From positions 1 to 42,117 of the forward strand of contig NZ_JAOART010000013.1 of assembly GCF_025210435.1 (NCBI RefSeq): a DNA stretch of 42,117 nt, in the 5' to 3' direction. Every line of letters begins with the position of its first letter. The first letter of the stretch is position 1. A program made the translations under genes and the position numbers. The notes beneath the pieces were generated by a model. That model saw nothing but the letters and a program-made list of their open reading frames with translations. It searched no databases and was not told where the DNA came from. This DNA is from Anaeromicrobium sp. (GTDB lineage Bacteria; Bacillota; Clostridia; Peptostreptococcales; Thermotaleaceae). Of the stretch, positions 1-41,057 are shown piece after piece.

Positions 1-1797
1 ATAGGTATGTTTAATTTTTATTCCCTTTTCATCTGTTATTCTTTTAAGTACATCCCATGGAGTATCCTTTTCATAAAGATCTACCTCTGTTAGAGAAAGG
101 GGGTCTCCCTTACCTATCGTTCTTTTTTCTATTGATAACTTTACCTTACCTACTGGTGCTTTTTCTTCATAGTTTATTGTAAATATCTTTTCTTCTTTAT
201 GACCTTCACTATCTGTTGCTATTACCTTTATAACATTTTTTCCTTTTTTTAATATAACCTTATATGAATCATTTGTACCTTTCTTTTCTACACTGTTTAC
301 TATTACAACAGGCTCTATTTTTTTATCAGAACTATCCTTTGCACTAACAGTAAATGTAAATTCCTCTTTATCTACTGTTTTATTTGCTAAGTTTGTTGTT
401 ATTACTGGTTGTACTGGCTTTATATTTATTGACTGAACATCGTCCATATTATAAAGACTATTTTTACCTTCTTTAAATCTATCATAAGCAACGAGAGCAT
501 ATAATCCTTGATCCGTAGCTATAGGATTTATCTTACCACCTACAATATGTTTAAAGCCACCATTTTCATCATAGAAAGTTAACAAGGCAGTAATTAAGCT
601 GTTTTCATTTTTTACAAATCTCTTATCTGTATGAGGATCTATATCCATTGCAGTTAAAGCAACAATAGCTTGTGCAATGCTTTCTAATGTTTTTGCTTTA
701 TTTTCACCAAAATTAATTAAATATTTGCCATCAGATCCTTGCTTATTAGATAAAACTGTAATTGCTTTGTCAATAGCTATTTTTACCTCAGGCTTTTTAT
801 CATAATAAGGCGCTAACGCTTGAATTGCCATACCCGTAATATCCAGGCTCATTGTAGTTTTATCATTAAGTCCAAATCCACCACTTTCAAGCTGATATTC
901 ATTAAGTATTCTATTTATGATTTCATCTCTTGTAATGGTTGCATTATCAGATTGTTTATAATTCTTTGTATCTAGGGCAAGAAGTGCAAATACTAACTCA
1001 TTAGCTCCTTGTCTATGTCCTAGCACACCATCAGGTTTGATGTTAGGGAAATTTCCACCTTTGTTCCAAATATAATCAAGTAAGTTGATTCCATCCACAT
1101 TTTCAGGATTTCTTCCTATTGCTGTAAGCCCAATAGCAACTCTTTCAACATCTGTTACTTTATTATCCCATCTGTTTCCTTGTTTAGCATGTTCTGCTTT
1201 TGCCTTATGTAAAACTTTTGAATAGTAATTTTCATAATAGTTTTCAGGCACTTGATAGTTTGCTCTTGCAAGAGAAAATACTGTCCAGTCGCCTCCAATA
1301 GTTCCTATACCTGGATCATTTGTATTTTCTATTTGATAAGCAGCCGTTTTGTTAATAGCTGTATATACTTGTTCCGCTACTGTTAATACCGGTTTTTCTT
1401 TATTGATAAGAACCATATTACTAATTGTTGTAGGCTTGTCCATCTTATCCCAAGCGAAGGCTTTGATTTTATATTCTCCTTCACTTGGAACCGGAATACA
1501 AGTACCCCAATTTTTCACTTGATTTGCACCAATTGTATCTGATACATAATTATATGTAATCATCTTATTAGAGGTACTTTCATAAAGCCCCACTATAAGC
1601 TTTGCTACTATGTCTTTATTAGTAGTATTCTCTACTCTCAATTCAACTTCAGCATCTTTATTGTTTTCAAAGTTTTTTACACTTACCTGTGACATAGTAA
1701 GTGGTTTATTGATTTCTGCTGCAAGGACAGGGGTGACATTTGAGAACAACATCATAAATATTAGAATAAATGCCAATATATTTTTGTTACTTTTCAC
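1..1797 (-). CDS. Secreted toroid + DUF4430 (transcobalamin-like) protein, 3' end cut by window
   Basis: The frame is open for 599 codons from a GTG at 1797 to the left window edge; AGGAGGAG lies just upstream of the GTG. The N-terminus is a signal peptide (basic MKSNKN, hydrophobic stretch, TPVLAAE cleavage region). A beta-rich stretch of about 120 residues follows, then an alpha/alpha-toroid of the prenyltransferase/squalene-oxidase repeat type, with repeats such as YQLESGGFGLNDKT and LTFYDENGGFKH and recurring TDxERVAIGLTAIG-like helices. After this come an Ig-like stretch and, at the edge, the start of a DUF4430 domain (VDLYEKDTPWDVLKRITDEK). DUF4430 is related to the C-terminal domain of transcobalamin, and the toroid is the fold of its N-terminal domain. 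A B12 riboswitch and terminator lie directly upstream, so expression is probably repressed by cobalamin. Corrinoid binding is inference. Confidence 0.85.
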   Translation of the reverse strand, partial: MKSNKNILAFILIFMMLFSNVTPVLAAEINKPLTMSQVSVKNFENNKDAEVELRVENTTNKDIVAKLIVGLYESTSNKMITYNYVSDTIGANQVKNWGTCIPVPSEGEYKIKAFAWDKMDKPTTISNMVLINKEKPVLTVAEQVYTAINKTAAYQIENTNDPGIGTIGGDWTVFSLARANYQVPENYYENYYSKVLHKAKAEHAKQGNRWDNKVTDVERVAIGLTAIGRNPENVDGINLLDYIWNKGGNFPNIKPDGVLGHRQGANELVFALLALDTKNYKQSDNATITRDEIINRILNEYQLESGGFGLNDKTTMSLDITGMAIQALAPYYDKKPEVKIAIDKAITVLSNKQGSDGKYLINFGENKAKTLESIAQAIVALTAMDIDPHTDKRFVKNENSLITALLTFYDENGGFKHIVGGKINPIATDQGLYALVAYDRFKEGKNSLYNMDDVQSINIKPVQPVITTNLANKTVDKEEFTFTVSAKDSSDKKIEPVVIVNSVEKKGTNDSYKVILKKGKNVIKVIATDSEGHKEEKIFTINYEEKAPVGKVKLSIEKRTIGKGDPLSLTEVDLYEKDTPWDVLKRITDEKGIKIKHTY

Positions 1798-1985: not shown

Positions 1986-2019
1986 AAAACCTTGACTTTT
2001 CCATGAAAGCCAAGGTTTT
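1986..2019 (-). terminator. Intrinsic terminator of the first B12 riboswitch
   Basis: AAAACCTTG pairs with CAAGGTTTT, and an inner CTTT pairs with AAAG across one mismatch. On the minus strand the stem runs into TTTTTTATTATT. It lies between the riboswitch and the gene starting at 1797, where a riboswitch expression platform would be. The flanks are AT-rich on both sides, so it could also stop plus-strand transcription. Confidence 0.85.
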
Positions 2020-2099
2020 ATTTGTAAATATTACCAATAACATACTAGTAAAATTTTCTTCTACCTTGCACAGTCCCTTTCCTCGGAAGGTTAAATGCT

Positions 2100-2240
2100 A
2101 AAACTTCTAGGCAGGTCTCCTGACTTGTGAATCATAGCTTCCTTTCGCCTTCCCAAGAATTTCTCAGTGGCATATTGAAAGGTCACTCCCCACTTACAGT
2201 GGCCGGACCGTTTGGGATTTTCACCCAATTCCCTTTTAAT
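2100..2240 (-). promoter_or_regulatory. Cobalamin (B12) riboswitch, copy 1
   Basis: Read on the minus strand, the conserved cobalamin-riboswitch blocks appear in order: GGGAATTGGGTGAAAATCCC, GGCCACTGTAAGTGG, the B12-box core GCCACTG (plus positions 2165-2171), GGGAAGGCGAAAGG, and the 3' block AAGTCAGGAGACCTGCC (about 2110-2126). A small hairpin (CTTTGAT/ATCAAAG, 2241-2258) precedes it. Directly downstream are the terminator at 1986-2019 and the gene starting at 1797. Firmicute B12 riboswitches usually terminate transcription when the ligand is bound. The match to the family consensus is strong. Confidence 0.95.
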
Positions 2241-2313
2241 CTTTGATCTGAATCAAAGAACCTAAAAATTATCTATTTAATTTTAAGTATCAATGCATGA
2301 TAAATTTTAACAT

Positions 2314-2366: not shown

Positions 2367-3842
2367 CTATTTCTCTACTTTGTTTTTGATTTGTCCTAAA
2401 GTCCAAGCACATTGAGCTCTATTTACATTATTTTCAATATTAAATTCAGGATAAATCCATCCTTTTTCCTTTGCTATTTGTAAATATCCTTCTCCTTCTA
2501 ATCTTAGGGCATTCACAAGGATTACCATGAATTCCTCTCCTGTAACCGTATCCTTCTTTATATTTATATCTTCCTTCAAATCAAAGGCTTTTTTCATCCA
2601 TTTAGAAAGATCCTCTTTTCTTATAGGATCATTGGGTTTAAAAGTTCCATCTTCATATGGATATAAAACATAATCATAAACTAAGTCTGCTGTTTCCTTA
2701 AAACCAAATTGACCTGGTTTGAAATCCTTGAACAAATGCTTTTGGGCTTCTAGTCTATACTTTTCATATAAAAGGTCATATGCACCCTTTTCATTGTATG
2801 CATCTGCCATGCCATATAAAGCTTGTTCTGTTGACATACCATTGCTATATATAGGTAGATTATCTTCTTCATTCAATACATGTGTAAAGCTTCCATCTTT
2901 TACTTGGAATTTAAGGATGGCACTAACAGGATTTTCTCCTGATTTTGTAGTCCAATTATGACCCATAGGGTCTTGTCCTATAAGTCTAATGCCTTGAATA
3001 GCCCATGCACAACTCTCAGGATTTACAGTTCCCCAGGATTCAAAACCTCCATTGTCTAGTTGTTTGCTATGAAGAAAATCTAATGCTTTTTTCACATTTG
3101 GATTACTTTCATCTTCTCCTAATATGGCAAAAGCCATAAGTCCAGCAGCAGTCATATCCACATCTGATTGGACTAGTTTATAATCTTCTGGATCATCAAA
3201 GTATTTTACATCAAAGCTGAATCCTCCATCTAAATTCTGTTGATCTTCCAGCCAATATAGACACATATCTCTATTTGGAATTGGTTCTCCTGCGCAGTGA
3301 AGAGCAATAATTCCAAATATATGGGCATTAACTAAATCTTCTCCCACTGGAAGTCCCGTTTTATTGTCCATTACAGAATCTGCAAAGTGCCCACTTGGAA
3401 GCATCGTACTTTTTTCAATCTCTACTAGATTTTTTCCTCCAAAGTTTCTAGGGTCCTTTCCTGCAGCACATACACCTATAATGGTTCTTTGATAATCTGT
3501 ATTTACTCCTGATCTTAAAGCATTATCATAATATCCTGGCTCTACCTTTGCTTCTTTTACTTGTTGTTCTCTAAAATATGGTCCATTTTTTCCATCTACA
3601 GTCCACTTTGGACCACTAATATCTTCTCCAAATCCAAATAATCCTAGTGCTGGCCAATCAAGAATTCCAGCATATTTATTTTCTTTGTACGTATCATTAT
3701 AATACTTAATGGTCTTTTGTGCAGCCTTATACACATCATCTCTAGTAACCTTTGACTCTGTAGCATACACACTAAAGAAACATAAATTGAACATCATCAA
3801 AAAACATACCAACATACATAATAGAAACTTTGTTCTTTTCAT
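2367..3842 (-). CDS. Secreted alpha/alpha-toroid protein with S-layer-like C-terminus
   Basis: This is the last gene of the B12 operon, 491 residues from the ATG at 3842, which has AGGAG eight bases upstream. An ATG 36 bases further upstream lacks a good Shine-Dalgarno site. A signal peptide (MKRTKFLLCMLVCFLMMFN, ending near VYATESK) precedes an alpha/alpha-toroid region with prenyltransferase-type repeats: WLEDQQNLDGGFSFD, FLHSKQLDNGGFESWG and FQVKDGSFTHVL, roughly residues 60-370. From about residue 390 the sequence resembles an SLH domain (YPYEDGTFKPNDPIRKEDLS), suggesting attachment to cell-wall polymer. It lacks the DUF4430 domain, unlike the gene at 1-1797. It shares the toroid fold with the N-terminal domain of intrinsic factor and transcobalamin. 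The ligand is unknown, and corrinoid binding is inferred from context. Confidence 0.85.
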   Translation of the reverse strand: MKRTKFLLCMLVCFLMMFNLCFFSVYATESKVTRDDVYKAAQKTIKYYNDTYKENKYAGILDWPALGLFGFGEDISGPKWTVDGKNGPYFREQQVKEAKVEPGYYDNALRSGVNTDYQRTIIGVCAAGKDPRNFGGKNLVEIEKSTMLPSGHFADSVMDNKTGLPVGEDLVNAHIFGIIALHCAGEPIPNRDMCLYWLEDQQNLDGGFSFDVKYFDDPEDYKLVQSDVDMTAAGLMAFAILGEDESNPNVKKALDFLHSKQLDNGGFESWGTVNPESCAWAIQGIRLIGQDPMGHNWTTKSGENPVSAILKFQVKDGSFTHVLNEEDNLPIYSNGMSTEQALYGMADAYNEKGAYDLLYEKYRLEAQKHLFKDFKPGQFGFKETADLVYDYVLYPYEDGTFKPNDPIRKEDLSKWMKKAFDLKEDINIKKDTVTGEEFMVILVNALRLEGEGYLQIAKEKGWIYPEFNIENNVNRAQCAWTLGQIKNKVEK

Positions 3843-3859
3843 TTTACACACTCCTTTTT

Positions 3860-6370
3860 TTATCTTTTCCTCACCCATATATCACCTATAAAAAATAATA
3901 GGGCTATGGGAAGTAAAATAAAGTCTAAAGGTGTATTAGACCTATTTTTTCTTTTTATAGGTAAATTAAATAATTTTGTACCTTTGTGAATCATAGAAGC
4001 ATTTCGATATAGATATGTATTTTTAGAATCATCTAGTGCATACTCAGGAGAATAATCAAGATAGATTATTCTCTTTGTATTCTTTATAATTTCATTATCT
4101 TTAATAAGTCTAAAATTAAGGGCATAATCTCCTTTTTTATCTAAATTAAAATGGCCCTTGAATTTTCCTGCCATTACTTGATTCAATATAATTTCTTCTT
4201 TAGAATTTTTACCTCCTTGAATTAGAAGTTGAACCATTTGATCCGAATCCTTTACACCTGTATCTACAAATACATTTACACTTGCACCCTTTTGAGTTAT
4301 GTCTATATTCATGTCTTTCCCACTATACTGAGGTAAACAATAGTTGATGATGCTACTCCATTGGTTTTTAAGTCCACTCCACCTTATCCATTCATGACTC
4401 CATTTTCCATTTAAATCTGCAGTCCATACTACTACATTCCCTAATCCGTATTTCCAATGAGCAAGTATAGGATCATCCATATCACTCTTTAAAACAAGAT
4501 TTCCTTCACTTTTAATTCCTGTTCCCATATACCCCTTTAATTTAGGAATGGGCTTATTCTTGAAAAATTCTGCTTCATTTACTATCTGTGGTGTAAATTC
4601 TCTGTTGTTTATATACTTTTTAGTAGCTAAATAAGTTTCCCTTGCAAATATTTCTGGAATACTGTGAAAATCTACTGAATAATAATTTCTTCCCTTTGTA
4701 TTCTTGCTTATACCCTCTAGTAATTTCCTATCTGAGTCCTTTCCAAAAGCAACGGTGGATACTGTAATTTCATTATTTTTAAATCCATTTATTATTTCTT
4801 CATAACCTTTCTTTTCTCCTTGTCCGTCTGTTAGAAGAATAATATGCTTTACCTTTGTATCTGCATTTCCTAGTGTTTCTAAGCTTTTTTGTAGGGCAGG
4901 TTTTATAAGGGTTCCTCCTCTTGAGCCTAACTTTCCTATATGCTTCTTTATCTTTTCCTTATCCTTTGCCTGTCCAAAGGGTACAATCCATTCTACTCTA
5001 TCAGAAAAAGCTAAGACTCCTGCATAATCATCTGATTCTAAAATTTCTATAGATCTCATGGCTGCTTCCTTTGCCATCTCAATCTTTTTTATACCTCCAC
5101 TTTCATCATCCATACTTCCTGATGCATCTATAATTAGTACTAATCCCGTATTAGGTTGTTTTTTATTTCCTTTCATAGTGCTTTTTACTGGAAGGATTTT
5201 TTCAAGTGTTGTCCCTTTATATCCTCCAAGGGCAAATGTTTTTTCTCCACCTACTACTACTAACCCCGTTCCCTGTTCTTTTACACATATATCTAATTTC
5301 GTTTCAAAATCCTCAGTCAAATCTTCGTGGGATACATTTACTAAACATATGGTGTCAAAGCCAGATAAAAACTCTATGGTACGAGGAACCTGTTTTGGTG
5401 AATAGTTCTCATAGTTTATTTCTGAATTTCTTAATATTTCATGTAAATTTTTAGTATCATCTTCATCTCCAATTACTAAAATCTTAGGCTTATCCTTTCC
5501 AACTATTGTTTTTGTAAATATGTTGTTCTTTAAATTTGTATCTCCTTTAAATTTTATTTCCCCTCTAAAATCAATACTTCCATTTTTAATAATAGGAATT
5601 TTAAATTCGAAGTTGTTTATTCCCTTTTTGACATGAAGTTCCTTTTTTAATATTTTTTCATTACTATTAAAAAGATAAAATGTTCCATCTGTTATAAGGC
5701 TTGAATTAACTGTTAATGTAATTGGTACCCTTTCTCCCTTATGGATATTAGCTGGAATATTAAAATTAGTAAGCTGAACGTCTTTTCTGTTTTTTGATTT
5801 TAATAGATAAACTACAACATTTATATTTTCTTCTTTGAAACTATGAATAACATTTAAAGAATCACCCATATTTTCTTTTCCATCTGTAAAGATTACCAAC
5901 CTTTTGTTTTTATCTTTTGGAAAATACTCTATTGCAAATTCTAAGGCCCTTTGTATATTGGTAAATTCAGCATCTGGTTTTGTTTCTAGTCTTATGTTCT
6001 TTATTTCTTCTGAAATAGGAAATTCTATCATTGGTTCCTTTCCAAAGGTTATTATTCCTATGCTTTCTTTTGATTTTTTATCTTTTATCTCATTATTTAC
6101 ATATTCCTCTATTTCTGATTTCCTTTCATCTACACTTAGGGACCTGTCTACTAAAAATAATGTGGTTGTATTATGACTGGTCAATACTATTTCTGCCTTC
6201 ATTAACACAAGGACAATACATATAATCCCTAGGACTCTTAAAACAATCCATGTCCAAAATTTCCTTTTGGGAAACAAATTATAAAAACGAAATCCTTGAA
6301 ATATGAAATATCCTAAAATAAGAATTGAAAAAATAATTATTTTTATATCTATCTGAGTATTAAGATGCAC
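3860..6370 (-). CDS. Membrane protein with two VWA domains and a GATase-like domain
   Basis: I chose the GTG at 6370 (836 residues) because GGGAGG lies nine bases upstream; the ATG at 6391 has no ribosome site. Two N-terminal membrane helices (about residues 10-30 and 38-60) precede a VWA domain with an intact MIDAS (DRSLS, about 75-79). A glutamine-amidotransferase-like domain follows (GLVVVGGEKTFALGGY). A second VWA domain has a perfect MIDAS (IDASGSMDD, about residue 410) with a TDGQ motif further on. A last membrane helix sits at the C-terminus (LDFILLPIALLFFIGDIW). Proteins of this kind occur with MoxR and DUF58 partners in Bat-type clusters. It overlaps the upstream BatA-like gene by 11 bases, so translation is probably coupled. 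Both VWA domains probably face outside and bind metal-dependent partners; this is inferred from the helix layout. Confidence 0.88.
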   Translation of the reverse strand: MHLNTQIDIKIIIFSILILGYFIFQGFRFYNLFPKRKFWTWIVLRVLGIICIVLVLMKAEIVLTSHNTTTLFLVDRSLSVDERKSEIEEYVNNEIKDKKSKESIGIITFGKEPMIEFPISEEIKNIRLETKPDAEFTNIQRALEFAIEYFPKDKNKRLVIFTDGKENMGDSLNVIHSFKEENINVVVYLLKSKNRKDVQLTNFNIPANIHKGERVPITLTVNSSLITDGTFYLFNSNEKILKKELHVKKGINNFEFKIPIIKNGSIDFRGEIKFKGDTNLKNNIFTKTIVGKDKPKILVIGDEDDTKNLHEILRNSEINYENYSPKQVPRTIEFLSGFDTICLVNVSHEDLTEDFETKLDICVKEQGTGLVVVGGEKTFALGGYKGTTLEKILPVKSTMKGNKKQPNTGLVLIIDASGSMDDESGGIKKIEMAKEAAMRSIEILESDDYAGVLAFSDRVEWIVPFGQAKDKEKIKKHIGKLGSRGGTLIKPALQKSLETLGNADTKVKHIILLTDGQGEKKGYEEIINGFKNNEITVSTVAFGKDSDRKLLEGISKNTKGRNYYSVDFHSIPEIFARETYLATKKYINNREFTPQIVNEAEFFKNKPIPKLKGYMGTGIKSEGNLVLKSDMDDPILAHWKYGLGNVVVWTADLNGKWSHEWIRWSGLKNQWSSIINYCLPQYSGKDMNIDITQKGASVNVFVDTGVKDSDQMVQLLIQGGKNSKEEIILNQVMAGKFKGHFNLDKKGDYALNFRLIKDNEIIKNTKRIIYLDYSPEYALDDSKNTYLYRNASMIHKGTKLFNLPIKRKNRSNTPLDFILLPIALLFFIGDIWVRKR

Positions 6371-7889
6371 GCCTGTACACCTCCCATTCAATAACCATAA
6401 AAACTAGTACTAATATTCCTAGTATTTCTGCAAAATCAAATACAGCCGTTTTAGTTTTTAAGTTTTTACTTTCTATATTTTTGTAGCTTTCTCCTGTTAC
6501 AAGCTTTAAAGGTGGATTACCTTTATAAGATATTTTATTCCCATCTAAAAGCCAGTCTATCGTATTGTTTATAAATATTGGAAAGTTTGGCGTCATAACT
6601 AAATTTGTTTTTCTAAAATCCATAGTACTATAAATTCTCTTTTGTTCATTTTCCATTCCACATATCATTATGTTTTTTTTGTCACATTGTAAAATAGGTT
6701 CATATCCTTCTCGTTCTTTTAAAAATTTTATTTTTTCAGTATACATACCATTCATATTTAAATTTTTAGAAAACTCATCATTTACAACATTTAATTTTGA
6801 AATATTTTCAGTCTCTCCAGCCGTAAGCTTAGGATGCATATTCCAAACATGCCCTTCCTTTGGCAGTTTTTCAATATCCATTTCTTTATCTACAACATAT
6901 AGATCATAGGCCCTTTTACTTTCATCCCATTCATTTATAAATTCAGCTTTTATATAAGGGATACTTAAAAGTGCTTTTTCTAGAAAAAAGTTTTTTCCTA
7001 TTAATAGTACCTTCTTTTTATCTTCTAATGGCACTGTAAACTTGTTATCTTCACTGAACATATCCTTATTTTCTATATGTAAAGTCACTAATTTTGAATC
7101 CTTAAAAACTTGAAAACTTATATGTTTTTCCTTATTTGAATCTATATTAATCCTTTGTAAATCTTTTTTCCCTTGATCATTTACTATGCTTACTACTACA
7201 GTTTCTTCTCTTTTCCCATAATTTTTTATCCTACACAAAATAGTGTTACTATAATAGTCATAATTCACATCTGTGATCCCTATATTCTCAAACTCATTTC
7301 CAACTTTTATAATTCTGTCTCCTAAAGATAAATCCTTATCTGTAATAATGATCTTTTTCCCTTCAACTGTACTTAGAATTTTAGAAGCATTATCAATATT
7401 TAACTCTTCATTGCTACATGAAATTCCTTTGAGTGCTTTTTTTATGTCTTCCTTTGTTGAATCTTTTAAATAAATTCCACTTCTTTTCTTTAATAAAACA
7501 AGATTAATCCTTGTAGTATCATCTAAATTATTAATATATTCATTTATTTTTTCCTTACCTAATTGAAAGTGTGTTTTTCCCTTTTCCTCAGCTTTCATCA
7601 TTATGGAACAATCAATTCCTAATGTTATTTCATCTCCGCTAAAACCTTTGATACATATGGGCTTTGAGAGGGCAGCAACTATGAATATCCCAATTAAAAT
7701 CTGTATAATTAAAAGAAAGTATTTATTTATTTTTCTTGATTTTACCCCTTCTACTTCCTTTAATACTTCATCCCAAAGAGCTATATTTGAAATTTTTTGC
7801 TCTATAATTTGTTTCTTCTTAAAGTGCAAAAGTACAATAATAGGTAAAAGAAAGGAAAAAAGTAAGCCTAAAGGATTTAATAATTTCAT
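6360..7889 (-). CDS. BatA-like membrane protein with degenerate VWA
   Basis: This is a 509-residue protein starting one base after the DUF58 stop codon, with GGGGG as ribosome site. The N-terminus is a BatA (aerotolerance regulator N-terminal) domain, MKLLNPLGLLFSFLLPIIVL, with a second helix at about 56-78. A VWA-like domain follows, but its MIDAS reads DCSIM (residues 93-97) instead of DxSxS, so metal binding may be lost. A C-terminal helix (AEILGILVLVFMVIEW) anchors the far end. This order matches the BatA-type partner in MoxR-DUF58-VWA clusters. No substrate can be read from the sequence. Confidence 0.85.
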   Translation of the reverse strand: MKLLNPLGLLFSFLLPIIVLLHFKKKQIIEQKISNIALWDEVLKEVEGVKSRKINKYFLLIIQILIGIFIVAALSKPICIKGFSGDEITLGIDCSIMMKAEEKGKTHFQLGKEKINEYINNLDDTTRINLVLLKKRSGIYLKDSTKEDIKKALKGISCSNEELNIDNASKILSTVEGKKIIITDKDLSLGDRIIKVGNEFENIGITDVNYDYYSNTILCRIKNYGKREETVVVSIVNDQGKKDLQRINIDSNKEKHISFQVFKDSKLVTLHIENKDMFSEDNKFTVPLEDKKKVLLIGKNFFLEKALLSIPYIKAEFINEWDESKRAYDLYVVDKEMDIEKLPKEGHVWNMHPKLTAGETENISKLNVVNDEFSKNLNMNGMYTEKIKFLKEREGYEPILQCDKKNIMICGMENEQKRIYSTMDFRKTNLVMTPNFPIFINNTIDWLLDGNKISYKGNPPLKLVTGESYKNIESKNLKTKTAVFDFAEILGILVLVFMVIEWEVYRRAS

Positions 7890-8729
7890 TTAAAAACCCC
7901 CTAACGCCTTTAATAAGATTTTAGTAGGTGAAGTATCTGTTGGGGCTAATACATATTTTACGTCCCTTGTGTTACAAGCATTTTTACATTCTTCTATAAA
8001 ACTTTTCATTTTATCCCTATATAGTTTTTTTATTTTAGGATTAAATTGAATTCTTCTAACACTTCCCGTCTCCATATCTATAAGCTTTAACTCTTCTCCA
8101 TAATCTGGATCAATTTCCGAAGATGAGAGTACATGTATAGCAATTACTTCCTGTCCCTTTGAACATAGAAAGTCTAAAATTTTTTCTATTTCTTTTCCAA
8201 AAAAATCAGAGATAATAAATGTCATGCCAGACATGAAGGTATCCATATTGAAAATAGAACTAAAATCTGTAATTTCTTCAAACTTAATATTTGAAACATC
8301 TTGGGTAAGTCTATAAAAATACTCTTTTCCTCTTATGTTTCTTTGAATATTATTAAGCTTATTATTTAATGTATAAAAGCTTAGATTATCCATTTGATTT
8401 AATGTCAAATAGCTTATTCCTAAGGAAATCATTTTTCCTATCTCTAACTTGTTAGGAGTTCCAAAATTCATTGATGCACTATTGTCTACTATTACATTCA
8501 CATGCATTTGTCTTTCTTCTGTAAATTCTTTTATATAGAATTTTTCTGTTTTAGCATAGGCTTTCCAGTCAATTTTCCTAATATCATCTCCTAATGAATA
8601 TTCCCTATGACCATGAAAATCTAATGAATTTCCAAATCCTTTTCCCTTATAATTTCCCTTTCCTCCTTTTAGGAGTTTCTTTTTAGGTGAAATCTTTAGA
8701 TTTTCTATTTCTCTTAGAAATTTTTCCAA
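7890..8729 (-). CDS. DUF58 domain protein
   Basis: This is a 279-residue soluble protein one base downstream of the MoxR gene. The family signature is clear: YSLGDDIRKIDWKAYAKT, then FTEERQ, then a VWA-like MIDAS, DNSASM (residues 82-87). DUF58 proteins are the standard partner of MoxR AAA+ ATPases and belong to the VWA fold superfamily. It probably links the ATPase to the membrane VWA proteins encoded downstream. Unlike some DUF58 proteins, it has no membrane segments of its own. Confidence 0.92.
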   Translation of the reverse strand: MEKFLREIENLKISPKKKLLKGGKGNYKGKGFGNSLDFHGHREYSLGDDIRKIDWKAYAKTEKFYIKEFTEERQMHVNVIVDNSASMNFGTPNKLEIGKMISLGISYLTLNQMDNLSFYTLNNKLNNIQRNIRGKEYFYRLTQDVSNIKFEEITDFSSIFNMDTFMSGMTFIISDFFGKEIEKILDFLCSKGQEVIAIHVLSSSEIDPDYGEELKLIDMETGSVRRIQFNPKIKKLYRDKMKSFIEECKNACNTRDVKYVLAPTDTSPTKILLKALGGF

Positions 8730-8730
8730 A

Positions 8731-9702
8731 TCACTTCACCTTCTTTAATATTTCTCTTAATATAATATCTGGAGTAATATTATCAGCCATTGCCTTAAAG
8801 TTAAGGAATATCCTATGTCTTAAACATGAAGATGCCATATGGTAAATATCATCTAGTGCAACATGAAATCTTCCTTCTGATAATGCCTTTACCTTAGCTG
8901 CAGCTATTATGGACTGTATACCTCTAGGGCTTACTCCACATTTTACATAGTCTCTTACCATCTGAATATCTGTTCTATCAGGATGAGTTTGAAGCATGAT
9001 TTTTATAGCCTTTTCTTTTACACTTGCAACTATAGGAAGTTTCATAGCCATTTTTTTCATAGCTAATATTTTTTCCCTTGTCGCACATTTTCGTAATTTA
9101 GGTTCATCATTACCATCTACTGTCAAATCCATGATTTTAAATAAATCTTCCATTTTGGGAAGGCTTATATTTAATTTAAACATGAATCTATCAAGCTGAG
9201 CTTCTGGAAGAGAATAGGTTCCTTCCATTTCTAGAGGATTTTCTGTTGCCAGTACAAAAAATGGTTCTTCTAATTGGTATGTAGTTTTTCCCACTGTTAC
9301 TGTCTTTTCTTGCATTGCTTCTAGGAGAGCACTTTGTGTTTTAGGTGTGGCTCTATTTATTTCATCTGCAAGTACGATAGAACTGAATATGGGTCCCTTT
9401 TCAAATTCAAATTCTATTCCATCTTCCTTTTTATTAATCATTACAGTTCCTGTTATATCTACAGGCATTAGATCTGGTGTAAACTGAATTCTTGAAAAGG
9501 GCATGTCCAAAACCTTTGAAAAAGTCTTTACAAGAACAGTTTTTCCAAGTCCTGGTGCCCCTTCCATTAAAACATTTCCTCCTGCAACAATACCTGTTAG
9601 TACCATTTTTATTATCTCATCCTGTCCTACAATTTGTTTTTTTATTTCTCTAACAATTAAGTCAAAGTCATCTTGAAAATTTTTAATAACCATTTCCTCC
9701 AT
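8731..9702 (-). CDS. MoxR-family AAA+ ATPase
   Basis: The 323-residue product has Walker A GAPGLGKT (residues 48-55), Walker B IVLADEINRA (about 109-118), a sensor-1 region LATENP and the MoxR hallmark YSLPEAQLDRFMF. The start at 9702 has AGGGGG seven bases upstream and lies inside the end of the preceding gene (20-base overlap). MoxR ATPases act as chaperone-like remodelers for VWA-domain partners; here those partners are encoded by the next three genes. The length is normal for the family. Confidence 0.96.
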   Translation of the reverse strand: MEEMVIKNFQDDFDLIVREIKKQIVGQDEIIKMVLTGIVAGGNVLMEGAPGLGKTVLVKTFSKVLDMPFSRIQFTPDLMPVDITGTVMINKKEDGIEFEFEKGPIFSSIVLADEINRATPKTQSALLEAMQEKTVTVGKTTYQLEEPFFVLATENPLEMEGTYSLPEAQLDRFMFKLNISLPKMEDLFKIMDLTVDGNDEPKLRKCATREKILAMKKMAMKLPIVASVKEKAIKIMLQTHPDRTDIQMVRDYVKCGVSPRGIQSIIAAAKVKALSEGRFHVALDDIYHMASSCLRHRIFLNFKAMADNITPDIILREILKKVK

Positions 9703-11257
9703 TTTGCTGCCCCCTATTTAATTTGTTGAAGTATTCTATTACTAGTTGTCTGTGTTCTAATGGTATTTCCTGTTTTGATATATAATCCATTCCTTCTTTC
9801 TTGAATGTATTATACATATGATCCATAGATTTAAATTCTCCCTTTACTTCTATTACATTCTCTGAATATTTATTTGTTATATTTCCCTCATTGTGCCAAT
9901 TACCTTCTACATTAGATATATTGGTTCCATCTTCTCCTAATCGTGTAGCTTCATCCTTTTTATCTACTTCACCTTCCTTAGGTATAGTATCTTCACTATC
10001 TCCACCTATGCCACTTCCACCTACACCACTTGAACTTTTAATACTTTTATTTCCACCATTACCAATAGCCATTTCCTCTGATTTTTTATTATTTATTTCA
10101 CCATTTTCGTAATCATCATTTTGTCCCTTTGCAAAATCAGACCCCTTTTCTTCTCCTCCCAAGCCTTTAAAGCCTTCATTTCCTTTTGCCAATAATCTTT
10201 CCTTCATACTTTTAAGCTTTGTTTCCGTATCCTTTGCAAACTTGTCAATTTTTTTGTCATTATTTTCTATAATATCTTCTAGTTTATCACTTGTAAGTTT
10301 TTTATCTTCTAGAGCTGTTTTTATTTCATTTAACATTTCTTTCTCTTTGGAATTATAATTTTTATTTAATTTTTCCATTTTTTTTATGTTTTCAGAAATA
10401 GTCTCTTGCTCTTTAGTTGTAAATTTCTTATCTTTTAGAGCATTAAAACTATCTAAATCTCCTGTCTGAAACATTTCTTCTAATGGAACATATTCATTGT
10501 CTAATCCATTAAAAATTCCTGCTATACTTTTCATATTACTTCTAGTCATTTCATTATTGATTTTTTTAAGTTTTTTTTCCATATCTGATACTTGTAATGC
10601 TGCTTCATTGTAATCAAAGCTTTTATTTAGCTTTTTTTCAAGATCGTCTAAACTCAAAAGAATCTCTTTCTTATGATCTTCACCTATATCTTCATCTTCT
10701 TCAATATTTTTCTTAAGTTCAGAAACATTTTTTCCTTCTTCTTTTAGTTCCTTGTTTATATGTTCCTTTTCTATTGCCTTGTTCATTGATAATGATGGAA
10801 CAAAATAAATGCCAACAGACAAGGCACATACTAAGGAACTAATAAGTACTTTTTTCCATTGTATATTAAGCTTATACTTTTTTAGTACATTAAAATTCTC
10901 TAAGCTATCCTCAGCCTCTTCTATAAACATTTCACAAATAAAGCTATCTTTATCTTTAAATTCTAAATATGTTTCAAGCCTTTCTTTTAACCCTAGTTTA
11001 TCACCTATAAGTGCCGTTTTAACTATACTAGGACGCCTTAAAACACCTACTATAATTCCTAAAATAATAATAGAAGTGATTAAAATAAAGGCCTTATTAA
11101 AAACATAAACTATAGGTGTTATATGTGCTACTATAGTGATGAATAAAAATCCAATACTAGAAATTAAAACTCCATTTATTAAGCTTTTTAGTATATTTCC
11201 TATCCATATCTTTCTTCTTAGTTTACTTAAAATAATGTCAATTTTATTTTTCTTCAT
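9683..11257 (-). CDS. Membrane-anchored coiled-coil protein
   Basis: I do not recognise the 524-residue product with certainty. Three hydrophobic segments lie near the N-terminus (about 22-45, 53-72 and 133-152). A long, highly charged region rich in Lys, Glu and Asp follows, with heptad-like helices (about 165-370). Then comes a Gly/Ser linker (GVGGSGIGGDSED and neighbours) and a short folded tail. DUF4175-like proteins in MoxR clusters have a similar layout, but I cannot confirm membership. The gene overlaps both neighbours (14 and 20 bases), so it is an integral part of the operon. The long outer arm could be a stalk or scaffold, which is inference. Confidence 0.75.
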   Translation of the reverse strand: MKKNKIDIILSKLRRKIWIGNILKSLINGVLISSIGFLFITIVAHITPIVYVFNKAFILITSIIILGIIVGVLRRPSIVKTALIGDKLGLKERLETYLEFKDKDSFICEMFIEEAEDSLENFNVLKKYKLNIQWKKVLISSLVCALSVGIYFVPSLSMNKAIEKEHINKELKEEGKNVSELKKNIEEDEDIGEDHKKEILLSLDDLEKKLNKSFDYNEAALQVSDMEKKLKKINNEMTRSNMKSIAGIFNGLDNEYVPLEEMFQTGDLDSFNALKDKKFTTKEQETISENIKKMEKLNKNYNSKEKEMLNEIKTALEDKKLTSDKLEDIIENNDKKIDKFAKDTETKLKSMKERLLAKGNEGFKGLGGEEKGSDFAKGQNDDYENGEINNKKSEEMAIGNGGNKSIKSSSGVGGSGIGGDSEDTIPKEGEVDKKDEATRLGEDGTNISNVEGNWHNEGNITNKYSENVIEVKGEFKSMDHMYNTFKKEGMDYISKQEIPLEHRQLVIEYFNKLNRGQQNGGNGY

Positions 11258-11963
11258 AGGCTACACCCCTTGGTGTTTTTTGAAATTTGCTTCCTAAAAA
11301 AAATCCAATAGTAGCTACACATGTCCAAAATATGAAATATATGACAATAGGCACAATACCCATTTGATTTGATCCACCAACCTGTGTATGCAATGTTCCT
11401 AATATGGACACAACTGGATTTAAAAAGAATATACTTGGAATATCCTTGTCATAGATGGTAGTAATAACCAATTGTCCATATTGGCTATAAAAGAACAAAA
11501 ATATACTACTTAAAATGATTATGACAAAAATAAACATAACTAAAGAAAAAGATTTCCATGTTTTATGGATTTTCGTACTATTTATCATTTTTTTCATACT
11601 CAAAATAACCATTCCCCATAGGACTTGAATAGATATGGGCAACAAAATATTTACACCATTTATTTTTCCTACCATAAAAATTATTAAAATTAATGGGGTA
11701 GATGAAATTGTGAAAAGAACACTATCAAATACTATCTTTATATATTTTTCCTTATCTATTTCCCATAATGAAATCATGACAGAAAATAATACTAATGAAA
11801 AAGTAGTAAAGTAGATATATGCTTTTTTATAAAGCTCAGGACTATATCCATCAATTCTCAAAGTAACCATAAATAAATAACTCATTAATATAATGGCTAG
11901 AATAAATACATAGGACATAATAATACCTTTATTTCTTTTATTCATATCCATAAGTTTAAGCAT
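11244..11963 (-). CDS. Polytopic membrane protein, unknown function
   Basis: The likely start is the ATG at 11963 (239 residues), preceded by AGGTG at six bases; a GTG nine bases upstream is the alternative. The protein is almost entirely hydrophobic helices, about six: near 14-35, 48-68, 80-98, 103-122, 134-158 and 203-226. The general look resembles an ABC-2-type permease, but no ATPase of the ABC class is encoded nearby and I see no family motif. It overlaps the upstream gene by eight bases and the downstream gene by 14. Confidence 0.75.
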   Translation of the reverse strand: MLKLMDMNKRNKGIIMSYVFILAIILMSYLFMVTLRIDGYSPELYKKAYIYFTTFSLVLFSVMISLWEIDKEKYIKIVFDSVLFTISSTPLILIIFMVGKINGVNILLPISIQVLWGMVILSMKKMINSTKIHKTWKSFSLVMFIFVIIILSSIFLFFYSQYGQLVITTIYDKDIPSIFFLNPVVSILGTLHTQVGGSNQMGIVPIVIYFIFWTCVATIGFFLGSKFQKTPRGVAYEEK

Positions 11964-13992
11964 TTTTATCACCTGCCATTATTTCAATTTGTGGAATTAT
12001 TACTCTTCCATTTCCTCTTATTCTGATTATGAATATTCCTTTTTCAATATAGCTTTTCAATTTTTCTTTATTCAATTCTGATGAAATCAAAGGGTCCCAT
12101 GTACCTTTACTAAAAACTTCTAAGTAAGTATCTTTAGAATCGGCTTTACAATAAATTTTCATTTCTTCCCCTTCTATATTTTTAGGTAAAATATAGTATG
12201 CTTTTACTTCTTTTCCTTCTTCTAAAATAAACTCATTCTTTTCTTTTGACTTTTCATTGTTACCATAATCTATAATAGGTCTAATTATTCCAGATGGAAT
12301 ATAATGATTTTCTTTGTCACTGTCTATACTTACATTAAACACATTACAAGTTACCTTATTACATTTTCTCTTTTCTTCATTGATCTCTAAATTTGAATTT
12401 TCATTACTAAACCCTATTAATTTTACTCCATAGGAATAGTCCCTTATATTATAAAAATAATATTCAAACATTTGCCTTTCATATGACTCTATTTCTGTAA
12501 CTTCATAGATTTTTTCAAGGTAATTATAATCTCCTAGATTTCTTAATGTATGATCTAACCTATAATTAATATCTATTCTTTCTTTCCCGCCTAGGTCTCC
12601 TATATTTATAATGGTATCTCCTACTAATAAAAAGCAATTATACATTTTATCTGCCAATGTATTTGTAATTTCTCCACTTAATATTTCTCCATCTAAATTC
12701 ATCTTCATATTTTCTGTCTTATATTCTTCAAATCCTTCACTATAAAGTGACAAGGGACTATTTTCTGTAACACTTGTATATTTTATTTTTCCTTCAATAG
12801 GATTTATTGAATATTCTTCATCATTTACATTATCCATAAATAATGGTGCCTCTACCTGGGCTAATACTTCTGTTTCCTTATATGGATATATATTAGATAA
12901 ACCATATGAACTGATTCCATCCTTATAAATTTTTATATCTGCTCCAACTACTTTACTTTTTTGAAATCCTCCCCATAGGGCTAATCCATAAAAGAATAGA
13001 GAAAAACTTAATATTACGCAAGTAAATAACCATTTATTTTTTCCTAAATAAATAGATAGGCCCATTAATATGAAGTAAATTATTAAAAAAGCTACCAAAA
13101 AAAATACACTATTATAGCTTGGCTCTAATAAATGTTCTAATGCTTGGTATAATTTTTTTGATTCCTGAGTTTTCACTACTAAATTGCTTCCTTCTAGGAC
13201 TTTAGAAAGTGCCCTAGGAGTTATGTGCTTTTCTATGGTATTTTTAATAAATTCAATATTACTATTTTCTAAATCTTCTTTAACAGGAATTATGTAACCA
13301 TCTCCAATTTGCTTTGTCTTATCTATTCCTTCAAATATTCCTGTTAATGTCTTATATTCATATTTATTTGCACCTATTAAAGCAACATTTCCCTTATGTA
13401 TCCATTTTTTCATATTATCTTGATTTTCCCTTGATAAATTTTCTGTATTAAAATTGTCTATTAGGATTAAATTTAAATTATCCATCTCCTTTAAAGTGTA
13501 CTTCATATCCTTGTCTAGAGTTATTACTTCTAAATTTTTATTTGATGGTAGATAATTTTTAATTTCTTCTAAATAATAGATTTTTTCAGGAGTATCATTT
13601 AAAATCCCTATAAAAATAGTTTTTTCTCCTAAAATATCTGGAGATACGGTTTTACTTTCTATGACTTGTCCCTTGTTTTCAAATTCAACTAGAATATCTT
13701 CATTCTCTTTAAATATTGGAATTGAAAATAAAAGTTCTTTCTTTGTATTTGGCCCTAAAGTTGCATTATAGGTATAAATTCTTTCATCTACATTTATTTT
13801 CACATTTCCTTTAAACTCTTTATCTTTTGATTCTACTATAACCTTTACTGGATTTATTCCACCTGCCTTACATTTTAAATTAAATCCTGATTCTATATGA
13901 ACATCTAAATTAGAAGAAGCATATGCTTCTTCTAATGGTATAAGTAAAATCATAAAAATAAGTATACTAAAAAAAACACTTATTTTTTTCAT
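11956..13992 (-). CDS. Exported membrane protein with large outer domains, unknown family
   Basis: The 678-residue product has a signal peptide (MKKISVFFSILIFMILLIPL, cleavage near EAYASS). A beta-rich domain follows (to about 120), then an alpha/beta stretch resembling a GATase-like fold (LNLILIDNF, GNVALIGANKYEYK). Two close membrane helices lie at about 288-309 and 318-340. A second outer beta-rich domain fills the C-terminal half. Both soluble parts would then face outside. The gap to the upstream DUF4430 gene is 16 bases. I do not recognise the family; BatD-type proteins occupy a similar role in related clusters but the sequence match is not evident. Confidence 0.75.
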   Translation of the reverse strand: MKKISVFFSILIFMILLIPLEEAYASSNLDVHIESGFNLKCKAGGINPVKVIVESKDKEFKGNVKINVDERIYTYNATLGPNTKKELLFSIPIFKENEDILVEFENKGQVIESKTVSPDILGEKTIFIGILNDTPEKIYYLEEIKNYLPSNKNLEVITLDKDMKYTLKEMDNLNLILIDNFNTENLSRENQDNMKKWIHKGNVALIGANKYEYKTLTGIFEGIDKTKQIGDGYIIPVKEDLENSNIEFIKNTIEKHITPRALSKVLEGSNLVVKTQESKKLYQALEHLLEPSYNSVFFLVAFLIIYFILMGLSIYLGKNKWLFTCVILSFSLFFYGLALWGGFQKSKVVGADIKIYKDGISSYGLSNIYPYKETEVLAQVEAPLFMDNVNDEEYSINPIEGKIKYTSVTENSPLSLYSEGFEEYKTENMKMNLDGEILSGEITNTLADKMYNCFLLVGDTIINIGDLGGKERIDINYRLDHTLRNLGDYNYLEKIYEVTEIESYERQMFEYYFYNIRDYSYGVKLIGFSNENSNLEINEEKRKCNKVTCNVFNVSIDSDKENHYIPSGIIRPIIDYGNNEKSKEKNEFILEEGKEVKAYYILPKNIEGEEMKIYCKADSKDTYLEVFSKGTWDPLISSELNKEKLKSYIEKGIFIIRIRGNGRVIIPQIEIMAGDKNA

Positions 13993-14008
13993 ACTATTCT
14001 CACATCCC

Positions 14009-15169
14009 TTAATTTATAGAAGGTGCATTTTCTATTCCGTTTTTCGATACTACAGCACTAAAATATTTATCAATAGCCCCAGGATTATTAATAAGTACAT
14101 CTAATGCCTTCTTCACTCCTTCATCATCTGTTCCTGTAATCATCCACACTGGACATACACTTCCTAACCCTGCTGCATAAGCATATACTGCACCAGCATG
14201 GTCATAAGATGAAATAGTCTTTCCTTTAAAGTTTAGTCTTTTTAATTTTCCATCTTGAAATTTCACATAGGTTCCGATTAATTTATTCTTTCTATTAATA
14301 TCTTTAATTAGTTTACTTTTCTTAGCTAATTCATCCCATACCCCTAATACCATATAATATTTCTTCGGTTTCTCTAAAACAGTTGGATTATATCTTGCTA
14401 CATCTACTTGCTTAACGCCTTTTTTAATTAAGCTTTCCTTTAATTTTTCAGCTTCTGCTTTATATTTATCTGTATACATAATTACAGTTCCTGGGTTTTT
14501 ACCAAAAAAACCACTTTTGAAGGGCTGTGGATATGATCCTATTACAGCTGGTGCAAACATGGTATAGCTCCAATTATGATAATCCCACCAAATCACATCA
14601 CCAGGCTCAGGTCTATACTCTGCAACTCCTATTGGTGCCATAATTCCATTTACCCAATAGAACCAATCTTCCTTTTTTCTGTCCTTACCAGTAAAGAAAG
14701 TGTATTTAGACTCTATTCCGTTAATAGAGTTTACAAATCCTCCTCCATAAGCAGTTTGAATATCTAAATTTCTAAACAAAACTTCCATTCCTACTTCATC
14801 TTTTACAAGGCCTACATTTTTTCCATATAATCTTTTATTTCCATAATTTGTAGTAACCACTAAATCCACCTGATAGGGACTTTCTATATCTCCTGAAGCT
14901 CTACGACATTTAGAATTTTCATCTGCTGGTCTACCTTCTTTGTATTTAATTTCTCCTTGAACAGGTCCTTTATATCCCTCATATGTAACCCCATCAATTA
15001 CCACAACATCTGATTTTGATTGTTCCTTTGTTCCTTCTGACTTTTCTGTAGTCTTATTTGTATCTTTTATGTTACTTATAACTCTTTTTCCTGTATTGCT
15101 CCATCCTGACATGAAAGACACAATTAACATAACAACAAGTAAAAAAGATAATTTCTTCATTTTTTTCAA
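14009..15169 (-). CDS. Secreted DUF4430 (transcobalamin C-terminal-like) protein
   Basis: This is the first gene behind B12 riboswitch 2. The TTG at 15169 has GGGGG eight bases upstream; an in-frame ATG nine bases later is possible. The product is 386 residues with a signal peptide (KKLSFLLVVMLIVSFMSG) and a Ser/Lys/Thr-rich linker. The DUF4430 domain at about 85-195 shows the family signature: DWFYWVNGIMAPIGVAEY and PGDVIWWDYHNW. DUF4430 is related to the beta domain of transcobalamin and intrinsic factor. A second alpha/beta domain (about 210-375) has the motif WMITGTDDEGVKKALDVL and is not recognised. There is no lipobox cysteine after the hydrophobic stretch, so it is probably released or held by partners. 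Corrinoid binding is plausible but unproven. Confidence 0.88.
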   Translation of the reverse strand: MKKMKKLSFLLVVMLIVSFMSGWSNTGKRVISNIKDTNKTTEKSEGTKEQSKSDVVVIDGVTYEGYKGPVQGEIKYKEGRPADENSKCRRASGDIESPYQVDLVVTTNYGNKRLYGKNVGLVKDEVGMEVLFRNLDIQTAYGGGFVNSINGIESKYTFFTGKDRKKEDWFYWVNGIMAPIGVAEYRPEPGDVIWWDYHNWSYTMFAPAVIGSYPQPFKSGFFGKNPGTVIMYTDKYKAEAEKLKESLIKKGVKQVDVARYNPTVLEKPKKYYMVLGVWDELAKKSKLIKDINRKNKLIGTYVKFQDGKLKRLNFKGKTISSYDHAGAVYAYAAGLGSVCPVWMITGTDDEGVKKALDVLINNPGAIDKYFSAVVSKNGIENAPSIN

Positions 15170-15208
15170 ATTCCATACCCCCTTCTTATGAATACTGCGT
15201 AAGTAAAA

Positions 15209-15235
15209 AATCCCCTTCCGACTAGGAAGAGGATT
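15209..15235 (-). terminator. Intrinsic terminator of the second B12 riboswitch
   Basis: On the minus strand AATCCTCTTCC pairs with GGAAGGGGATT (one mismatch, loop of five) and is followed by TTTTTT. It lies between the riboswitch and the start codon at 15169, the expected place for the ligand-dependent terminator. Confidence 0.88.
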
Positions 15236-15329
15236 ATATGTCTAGAATTATACAAACATTTATTTAACGTGCTTATATACTTAATTATCATATATCTTCT
15301 TCTCCTTTAAGCCGAAGGATTTAGGAAGA

Positions 15330-15473
15330 ATGTAACATTAGGTCTCCTGACTCACGAATCACCTTTAAATCAAGCCTTCCCATCTATTTGACAGTGGCAT
15401 ATTTTGATTTTCATCCTCGCATACAGTTACGACTACAGTAAGGGCTTTTCACCCTTTTCCCTAAACGTTACAT
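15330..15473 (-). promoter_or_regulatory. Cobalamin (B12) riboswitch, copy 2
   Basis: The minus strand shows GGGAAAAGGGTGAAAAGCCC, the B12-box core GCCACTG (plus 15392-15398), GGGAAGGC and GAGTCAGGAGACC. The ends ATGTAAC and GTTACAT (15467-15473 with 15330-15336) can pair as the closing P1 stem. A terminator and the nine-gene operon follow. The consensus match is strong. Confidence 0.95.
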
Positions 15474-15520
15474 CATTTTAAATTTTATTTGTTACATATT
15501 ATTCCATTGTTACCAAATCC

Positions 15521-15548
15521 ATTATATCATTTTGCTATATAATGTCAA
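15521..15548 (-). promoter_or_regulatory. Consensus sigma-A promoter of the B12 operon
   Basis: TTGACA (15548-15543) and TATAAT (15526-15521) are both perfect hexamers with a 16-base spacer. The riboswitch begins about 48 bases after the -10 box. Eight bases upstream of the -35 box lies an 18-bp perfect palindrome. Confidence 0.88.
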
Positions 15549-38458: not shown

Positions 38459-38480
38459 AAGAGCAGCTTACGCTGCTTCT
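38459..38480 (-). other. Hairpin between murA remnant and ftsQ
   Basis: On the minus strand AGCAGC pairs with GCTGCT around GTAA with extra outer pairs. It lies right after the murA stop codon but no T-run follows, so it is at most a weak attenuator or mRNA-stability element. Confidence 0.4.
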
Positions 38481-39403: not shown

Positions 39404-39405
39404 GT

Positions 39406-40959: not shown

Positions 40960-41057
40960 TCCTATGACCTCCATAGTAGAACTTATTATTTTACTACTAT
41001 TTATAGTTTTCCATGTGTACACATGGATTATGATAATGAAAAAATTAATATGTACTA

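What the first reader, a model, noticed from the sequence alone, without database searches (positions are those of the whole stretch)
2367..15548. B12-riboswitch-controlled MoxR/VWA operon flanked by transcobalamin-like secreted proteins
A consensus promoter and cobalamin riboswitch lead into nine packed genes: secreted DUF4430 protein, two membrane proteins, coiled-coil membrane protein, MoxR ATPase, DUF58, BatA-like, double-VWA and secreted toroid protein. Intergaps are 17 bases or less and most genes overlap. I know of no described B12 system with a MoxR/VWA machine. The simplest reading is a cell-surface corrinoid capture or delivery device whose assembly is driven by a cytosolic AAA+ ATPase. 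Another possibility is B12-status-dependent remodeling of the envelope.
Basis: partly seen in the sequence, partly recalled or inferred. Interest (0 to 1): 0.9.

Follow-up and report, generated by a model that had tools for sequence, protein, structure and literature searches.

The report
Likely vitamin B12 surface-capture machine
Some Gram-positive bacteria carry, under the control of a vitamin B12 sensor, a nine-gene set that pairs a protein shaped like part of our own B12 carriers with an ATP-driven membrane machine, probably to grab B12 at the cell surface and pass it to an importer; we found no earlier description of such a machine in this role.

The parts
15521..15548 (-). sigma-70 type promoter with extended -10
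   Evidence: 12 of 12 consensus matches, spacer 16
15320..15484 (-). cobalamin riboswitch aptamer (RF00174)
   Evidence: 82.6 bits, E 5.1e-19
15209..15235 (-). intrinsic terminator of the riboswitch leader
   Evidence: 11-pair stem plus T run, -15.7 kcal/mol
14009..15169 (-). g1: secreted DUF4430 protein; residues 97-201 fold like the beta domain of B12 carriers, residues 208-385 a second alpha/beta domain
11956..13992 (-). g2: signal peptide, two probable ectodomains, two TM helices
   Evidence: ORF; hydropathy; no Pfam match
11244..11972 (-). g3: six-TM protein
   Evidence: no Pfam match
9683..11257 (-). g4: three TM segments and a long charged (coiled-coil-like, by eye) tail
   Evidence: no Pfam match
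8731..9702 (-). g5: MoxR AAA+ ATPase
   Evidence: AAA_3 E 3.6e-61; Walker A GAPGLGKT and Walker B
7890..8729 (-). g6: DUF58 protein with MIDAS-type DxSxS
   Evidence: E 4e-29; motif at residue 82
6360..7889 (-). g7: BatA-like membrane protein, MIDAS degenerate here (DCSIM)
   Evidence: BatA E 6.5e-9; motif
3860..6391 (-). g8: membrane protein with two VWA domains, both with DxSxS
   Evidence: VWA E 2.2e-31, 2 stretches; motifs at 82 and 422
2367..3878 (-). g9: secreted alpha/alpha-toroid protein with a weak SLH-like C-terminal match
   Evidence: SQHop_cyclase_C E 1.9e-7, SLH E 7e-4 below cut-off
2093..2280 (-). second cobalamin riboswitch
   Evidence: 139.5 bits, E 2.8e-35
1986..2019 (-). terminator of the second leader
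   Evidence: 14-pair stem plus T run
1..1797 (-). g10: surface protein with toroid region, runs off the contig start
   Evidence: ORF; Prenyltrans E 0.0012, below cut-off

Best explanation
A B12-controlled corrinoid capture and hand-over module of Gram-positive bacteria. Steps and basis: (1) when cobalamin is scarce the riboswitch lets transcription pass the terminator (parts shown in the sequence; direction from the known action of this class). (2) g1 (beta domain of a B12 carrier) and g9 (alpha/alpha toroid) are exported and together act like the two halves of a transcobalamin-type binder at the membrane/cell wall (fold of g1 predicted; split-carrier idea inferred). (3) They feed a membrane importer, usually a CbrT-type ECF transporter (genomic association shown; delivery inferred). 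(4) The MoxR ATPase with DUF58 in the cytosol acts through g2, g3, g4, g7 and g8, whose large domains probably lie outside, to open or reset the binder so that tightly bound corrinoid is released to the importer, a role comparable to TonB in Gram-negatives (inference; probability about 0.4 given the rest).
Against: The window's own genome shows no EcfS, no fused EcfA of this type, no ECF-type g1; it has BtuFCD-type genes instead, or the set lies in an assembly gap. G110 has g1, g9, weakly g2- and g3-like genes and ECF on one 12.3-kb contig without MoxR/DUF58/VWA, so the ATPase may not always be needed. The third MIDAS position of g7 is S in 5, T in 6 and M in 2 of 13. By sequence, g9 matches squalene cyclases, not B12 carriers; its structure could not be predicted. 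Two of 24 copies show no riboswitch (L044, L049), and for 6 the riboswitch may belong to another transcript. No binding, transcription or transport data. Genomes are related, so the Fisher p is too small; within the window's family alone p = 0.05.
Confidence: 0.55

Rival explanations
1. The MoxR/VWA module is an assembly chaperone: it folds, inserts or anchors the surface corrinoid binders (g1, g9, the giant surface proteins) and takes no part in each uptake cycle.
For: MoxR ATPases with VWA partners are described as chaperone-like maturation factors (starts of abstracts); giant surface proteins follow the second riboswitch in several relatives and could be clients.
Against: ECF cassettes with g1, g9-like toroid and large surface proteins occur without MoxR beside them, so these proteins do not need it in general; the generic clusters carry the module without such clients.
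Confidence: 0.27
2. Corrinoid processing: the AAA+/VWA pair works like the cobaltochelatase/NorQD type on the corrinoid or a corrinoid protein (metal, ligand or base exchange) rather than on transport.
For: Weak match of the g8 VWA to a cobaltochelatase subunit model (E 1.5e-8, far below its cut-off); NorQD serves metal insertion; nitrogenase-like proteins (L066) and a DUF71-type protein (L073) lie beside the operon in Marinisporobacter-type genomes.
Against: VWA domains of g7 and g8 are probably outside the membrane (simple charge rule); no chelatase large subunit among the Pfam matches of the operon.
Confidence: 0.1
3. B12-status-dependent envelope remodelling: the operon changes the wall or S-layer and does not handle corrinoid.
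For: SLH, Ig-like and toroid surface proteins; the C-terminal domain of g1 resembles BcsB and glycosidase side domains.
Against: B12-carrier fold of g1 and the CbrT-type ECF linkage.
Confidence: 0.06
4. MoxR-vWA conflict (defence) system.
For: g5 scores 59.8 bits with bpMoxR PF20030 (cut-off 27).
Against: No effector, VMAP, iSTAND or FtsH component among Pfam matches; only two weak PADLOC hits, both on the ATPase; same gene content in the 24 genomes, where effectors of such systems vary (PMC7159879, passages).
Confidence: 0.02

Closest known systems
ECF-CbrT cobalamin importer (6FNP, PMC5997447)
   Same: S-component family (E 2e-14 to 5e-14) travels with g1/g9 paralogs; cobalamin as substrate
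   Different: The window operon has no EcfT/EcfA/EcfS; the passages of the paper that I saw mention no secreted binder or MoxR/VWA module with CbrT
Haptocorrin / intrinsic factor / transcobalamin
   Different: the two domains sit on two proteins; g1 has a further C-terminal domain; toroid matches squalene cyclases by sequence
BtuG-BtuB-TonB of Bacteroides (PMC6143338)
   Same: surface lipoprotein capture of B12 next to an energised membrane step (works like)
   Different: no homology sought or seen; Gram-positive envelope; AAA+ ATPase in place of TonB (inferred)
Generic MoxR-DUF58-BatA-VWA clusters with ABC ATPase and permease (L031-L037)
   Same: g2-like, g4-like, MoxR, DUF58, BatA, VWA in the same order where the contig reaches (no g7 match in L037, L035 cut)
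   Different: ABC pair in place of g3 (read in L031 and L033); no g1, g9 or cobalamin riboswitch; MoxR tree splits the two sets (99*)
NorQ/NorD (PMC13036017) and other MoxR/VWA pairs
   Same: MoxR AAA+ with MIDAS VWA partner
   Different: membrane-bound, probably extracytoplasmic VWA domains plus DUF58; client unknown

Membership tests
Cobalamin riboswitch RF00174 | covariance-model score above gathering cut-off | tested here: met
   82.6 and 139.5 bits, cut-off 31.5
Cobalamin riboswitch RF00174 | expression platform (terminator) between aptamer and gene | tested here: met
   15235-15209; 15 of 17 leaders
Cobalamin riboswitch RF00174 | transcript falls when B12 is present | not testable with these tools
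   needs RNA data
Transcobalamin-type B12 carrier | DUF4430 / beta domain | tested here: met
Transcobalamin-type B12 carrier | alpha6/alpha6 toroid of the carrier type | tested here: inconclusive
   g9 toroid by Pfam; PDB sequence hits are squalene cyclases and other toroid enzymes; structure job never accepted
Transcobalamin-type B12 carrier | both domains in one chain | tested here: not met
   g1 and g9 are separate genes; chains with both exist in L057:5827-9981 and L046:2521-5247
Transcobalamin-type B12 carrier | corrinoid binding | not testable with these tools
   needs protein
ECF-CbrT transporter | CbrT-like S-component with EcfT and EcfA in the genome of the window | tested here: not met
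   not found in the window's own genome (two other CbiQ-type genes), though the S-component is in 23 of 24 operon genomes; the window operon itself is not an ECF transporter
MoxR/VWA machine | MoxR AAA+ with intact Walker motifs beside a VWA protein with MIDAS | tested here: met
MoxR/VWA machine | physical MoxR-VWA complex and ATP-driven remodelling | not testable with these tools
   needs biochemistry
Generic MoxR-DUF58-BatA-VWA cluster with ABC pair | ABC ATPase plus permease between the g2-like and g4-like genes | tested here: not met
   only g3 lies there in the window; ABC pair in L031 and L033
MoxR-vWA ternary conflict system | third component (VMAP, iSTAND, FtsH or beta-propeller) and variable effectors | tested here: inconclusive
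   no such domain by Pfam or PADLOC, but g2, g3 and g4 have no match at all; g5 scores above the bpMoxR cut-off

The most novel reading that the evidence does not exclude
Bacillota have their own counterpart of the TonB-driven step: a MoxR/DUF58 ATPase in the cytosol sends force through a membrane array with external VWA domains to a split transcobalamin (g1 plus g9), prying loose very tightly bound corrinoid and passing it to an ECF or BtuCD importer. It would be, as far as I know, the first nutrient uptake system powered by an AAA+ machine.
Probability: 0.33. Interest if true: 0.93.

Novelty: new variant of a known kind. Interest (0 to 1): 0.8.

Why it matters
MoxR/VWA clusters are common and, to my knowledge, mostly without a known client. 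Here regulation, carrier-fold protein and importer linkage all point to one ligand, a corrinoid, so the function of one such machine becomes directly testable. It would also give Gram-positive bacteria a transcobalamin-like surface capture step, known to me (recall, plus PMC6143338 and the PMC8941943 abstract) only from animals and, with other proteins (BtuG, BtuH), from Bacteroidota.

Tried and rejected
Auxotrophy link: not supported for the 13 operon genomes tested, all have CbiD (one marker gene only). Defence system: judged unlikely. Viral origin: one scan of viral contigs with g2 gave 7 pattern matches and no relative. Riboswitch in L024, L025, L026, L030: not directly upstream (motif check of 900 nt), but found further upstream in L091-L094; L044 and L049 have none in the 9.7 and 8.9 kb available. 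In the collection scan 25 loci were returned from 86 pattern matches; patterns came from two peptides of g1, so more distant copies are missed. PDB sequence search of g1 gave only chance hits; the carrier relation rests on Pfam and the predicted fold. The g9 structure (A4) was never accepted. Foldseek 'pdb' was busy, so the fold comparison is the VIA second look alone. Pairing of leader and terminator was explored but no antiterminator was established. Literature: ten searches in an open-access library, judged from listings, gave no paper that joins MoxR with cobalamin riboswitches in an operon; not every hit was listed (25 of 45, 15 of 24). The single hit (PMC545781) has MoxR in a table of Fur-type sites only (passages). 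Subscription papers and preprints were not searched.
Full report
What is there. On the - strand of the window a perfect sigma-70 type promoter (15548-15521), a cobalamin riboswitch (15484-15320, 82.6 bits) and a terminator hairpin (15235-15209) precede nine tightly packed genes (15169-2367): g1 DUF4430, g2 and g3 membrane proteins, g4 membrane protein with a long tail, g5 MoxR, g6 DUF58, g7 BatA-like, g8 double VWA, g9 toroid. A second cobalamin riboswitch (2280-2093, 139.5 bits) and terminator follow and lead into g10, a toroid surface protein cut by the contig start. The genome has 11 such riboswitches.

Conservation. g2 found 13 full-length matches, own included, in 149 genomes of the order; the 12 fetched loci hold the same nine genes, in two of them with g1 and g9 after g8 (L029, L030). 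A scan of named genomes with a g1 alignment returned 25 loci, of which 11 are further MoxR operons: 24 genomes in all, among them Marinisporobacter, Anaerophilus, Maledivibacter, Anaerovirgula, Clostridium tetanomorphum and C. rectalis, Desulfotruncus, Tepidanaerobacteraceae, Aneurinibacillus and one contig labelled Armatimonadetes. In these 11 the fetched DNA ends within g8 or just after; g7 has no separate match in L053, and g2 is in two ORFs in L056. A later genome search found the g9 relative in 11 of 11 (E<=6.4e-189), on the same contig and strand as g1 and 9.7 to 17.2 kb downstream in 9, on another contig in 2 (G150, G159).

Riboswitch. Within 92-365 nt of the first operon gene in 16 of 24 (window, L019-L023, L027-L029, L043, L045, L047, L050, L053, L054, L056; gaps). 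Upstream on the same strand with other genes between in 6: L052 one gene, G057 two, G043 and G032 four, G068 and L046 five; whether these are one transcript is not shown, least of all for G032 and G043. None in L044 and L049 (gene lists). In 17 leaders tested (the 16 plus L052 before its next gene) 15 have a terminator of -12 kcal/mol or better, against 18 of 340 dinucleotide shuffles; L050 and L056 do not.

Control clusters. Seven loci brought in by weak g2 matches (L031-L037) are MoxR-DUF58-BatA-VWA type clusters without g1 or g9 (L035 is cut before MoxR, L037 gives no g7 match). None of the seven has a cobalamin riboswitch in the 13.6-20 kb held. An eighth weak match, L038, is the G110 locus below. 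L031 and L033 carry an ABC ATPase and a permease where the B12 operon has g3 (by blast and reading; the others leave a gap of like size). A MoxR tree of 24 operon and 6 control sequences splits them with 99% SH-aLRT (quick method, two long rows).

The partner importer. In loci without MoxR, the g1 relative lies in riboswitch-headed clusters with EcfT, a double EcfA, an ECF S-component and, in most, a g9-like toroid: L057-L061 (5 of 5 with riboswitch; Pfam run on L057 and on the S-component of L058, others read by position and first residues) and G013, G016, G024, G007 (4 of 5 tested with riboswitch, not G128). The S-component matches 6fnp chain A (E 4.9e-14 and 1.7e-14) and no other S-component in the PDB at E up to 1. 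6FNP is ECF-CbrT, which takes up cobalamin and cobinamide (PMC5997447, passages seen). That chain A is the S-component I infer from its length (182 aa) and the match. The S-component family is in 12 of 12 non-own operon genomes of the panel (one of them, G032, supplied the query) and in 11 of 11 further operon genomes (E<=1.0e-42), and in 12 of 136 panel genomes without the operon at E<=1e-50 (Fisher p 2e-10; 40 of 136 at E<=1e-10, p 1e-5). Within the window's family the contrast is 7 of 8 against 3 of 9 (p 0.05). In G068 the ECF genes run straight into g1 and the MoxR operon; in L046 the S-component match and the g1 match lie about 600 nt apart on one contig (G152; other ECF genes read by position). 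G110 has g1, weakly g2-like and g3-like genes, g9, EcfT, EcfA and EcfS on a 12.3-kb contig without the MoxR part.

Against this, the window's own genome, 93% complete, shows no such S-component, no fused EcfA (best match 43% over about 150 residues) and no ECF-type g1; the one other genome of its genus has neither operon nor S-component (G001). The contig ends inside g10, and in G010, the nearest relative, the ECF set lies about 18-21 kb beyond the second riboswitch, so loss and assembly gap are both possible. The own genome does have riboswitch-headed Peripla_BP_2 genes (two) and, behind one, a FecCD gene, the BtuFCD type; substrate not tested.

A mark of the MoxR-type g1. The segment GPVQGE (mostly YKGPVQGE) occurs in 24 of 24 operon g1, in the G110 g1, and in 0 of 13 ECF-type g1; it lies in a stretch with low confidence on its own (residues 69-89 under pLDDT 50). 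Because G110 has g2- and g3-like genes but no MoxR nearby, it may dock on g2/g3 (inference). The operon g1 form one clade, 100/99 support, that also holds the G110 sequence (several long branches among the ECF-type rows).

How it may work. Walker motifs of g5, MIDAS of g6 and both MIDAS of g8 are kept in 13 of 13 loci; in g7 the last MIDAS position is S in 5, T in 6 and M in 2 (window, L019). Positive-inside reading puts the large parts of g2, g4, g7 and g8 outside and MoxR/DUF58 inside (simple hydropathy and charge counts, not a trained predictor). B12 carriers hold corrinoid very tightly (recalled), so a wall-side carrier would need a release step; in Gram-negatives uptake through BtuB is TonB-dependent (PMC6143338, passages). 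NorQD is proposed to use a MoxR ATPase that twists its VWA partner to open a client (PMC13036017, abstract and Discussion). I therefore favour ATP-driven opening of the g1/g9 carrier, with assembly chaperone as the main rival. This last step rests on inference alone.

Physiology. CbiD is present in 13 of 13 operon genomes of the panel, so these bacteria may well make corrinoids themselves; the system would then be for salvage when supply is low.

Novelty. Ten searches of the open-access library found no description of a B12-controlled MoxR/VWA operon (call numbers and limits under Tried and rejected). The parts are known families; their union, its regulation and its spread are new to me.

Noticed in passing
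window 38480-41022 (-): The murA ORF begins at profile position 128 of the family model, and a large serine recombinase gene lies directly upstream of it; a recombinase-bearing element may split murA, as in developmentally excised elements. The other half was not found in the short ORFs up to the contig end.
   Followed up: partly
L066:8791-12265 and L073:13825-17971: In Marinisporobacter-type genomes a NifH/NifD-like fusion and a second nitrogenase-like protein and, in L073, a DUF71 (Diphthami_syn_2) protein lie near g9 among B12-linked surface genes (Pfam run on the L066 pair and the L073 DUF71).
   Followed up: partly
L091:9485-12770, L092:3340-6439, L093:6639-9792, L008:1842-3074: Cobalamin riboswitch followed by an AspT/YidE-type permease, and in three loci a CoA-transferase (succinyl-CoA:acetate type by NCBIfam in L091, others by likeness).
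   Followed up: no
L068:3038-12916 and L066:1520-8710: Very large surface proteins (3292 and 2396 aa) downstream of the second cobalamin riboswitch, matching the SLH-bearing end of an L057 protein.
   Followed up: no
L044: Contig labelled Armatimonadetes whose MoxR and g1 are sisters of a Peptococcaceae MAG with the same isolate prefix: probably mis-binned or a transfer.
   Followed up: no
   Followed up: no
window g1, residues 208-385: Second domain of g1 resembles the BcsB cellulose-synthase subunit and glucuronidase side domains; role unknown.
   Followed up: no
L023:339-411: RAGATH-18 RNA upstream of the operon riboswitch.
   Followed up: no
L031:7474-7563, L032:6963-7052, L036:14677-14766: Glycine riboswitch near three of the generic MoxR clusters, pointing away from them.
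   Followed up: no
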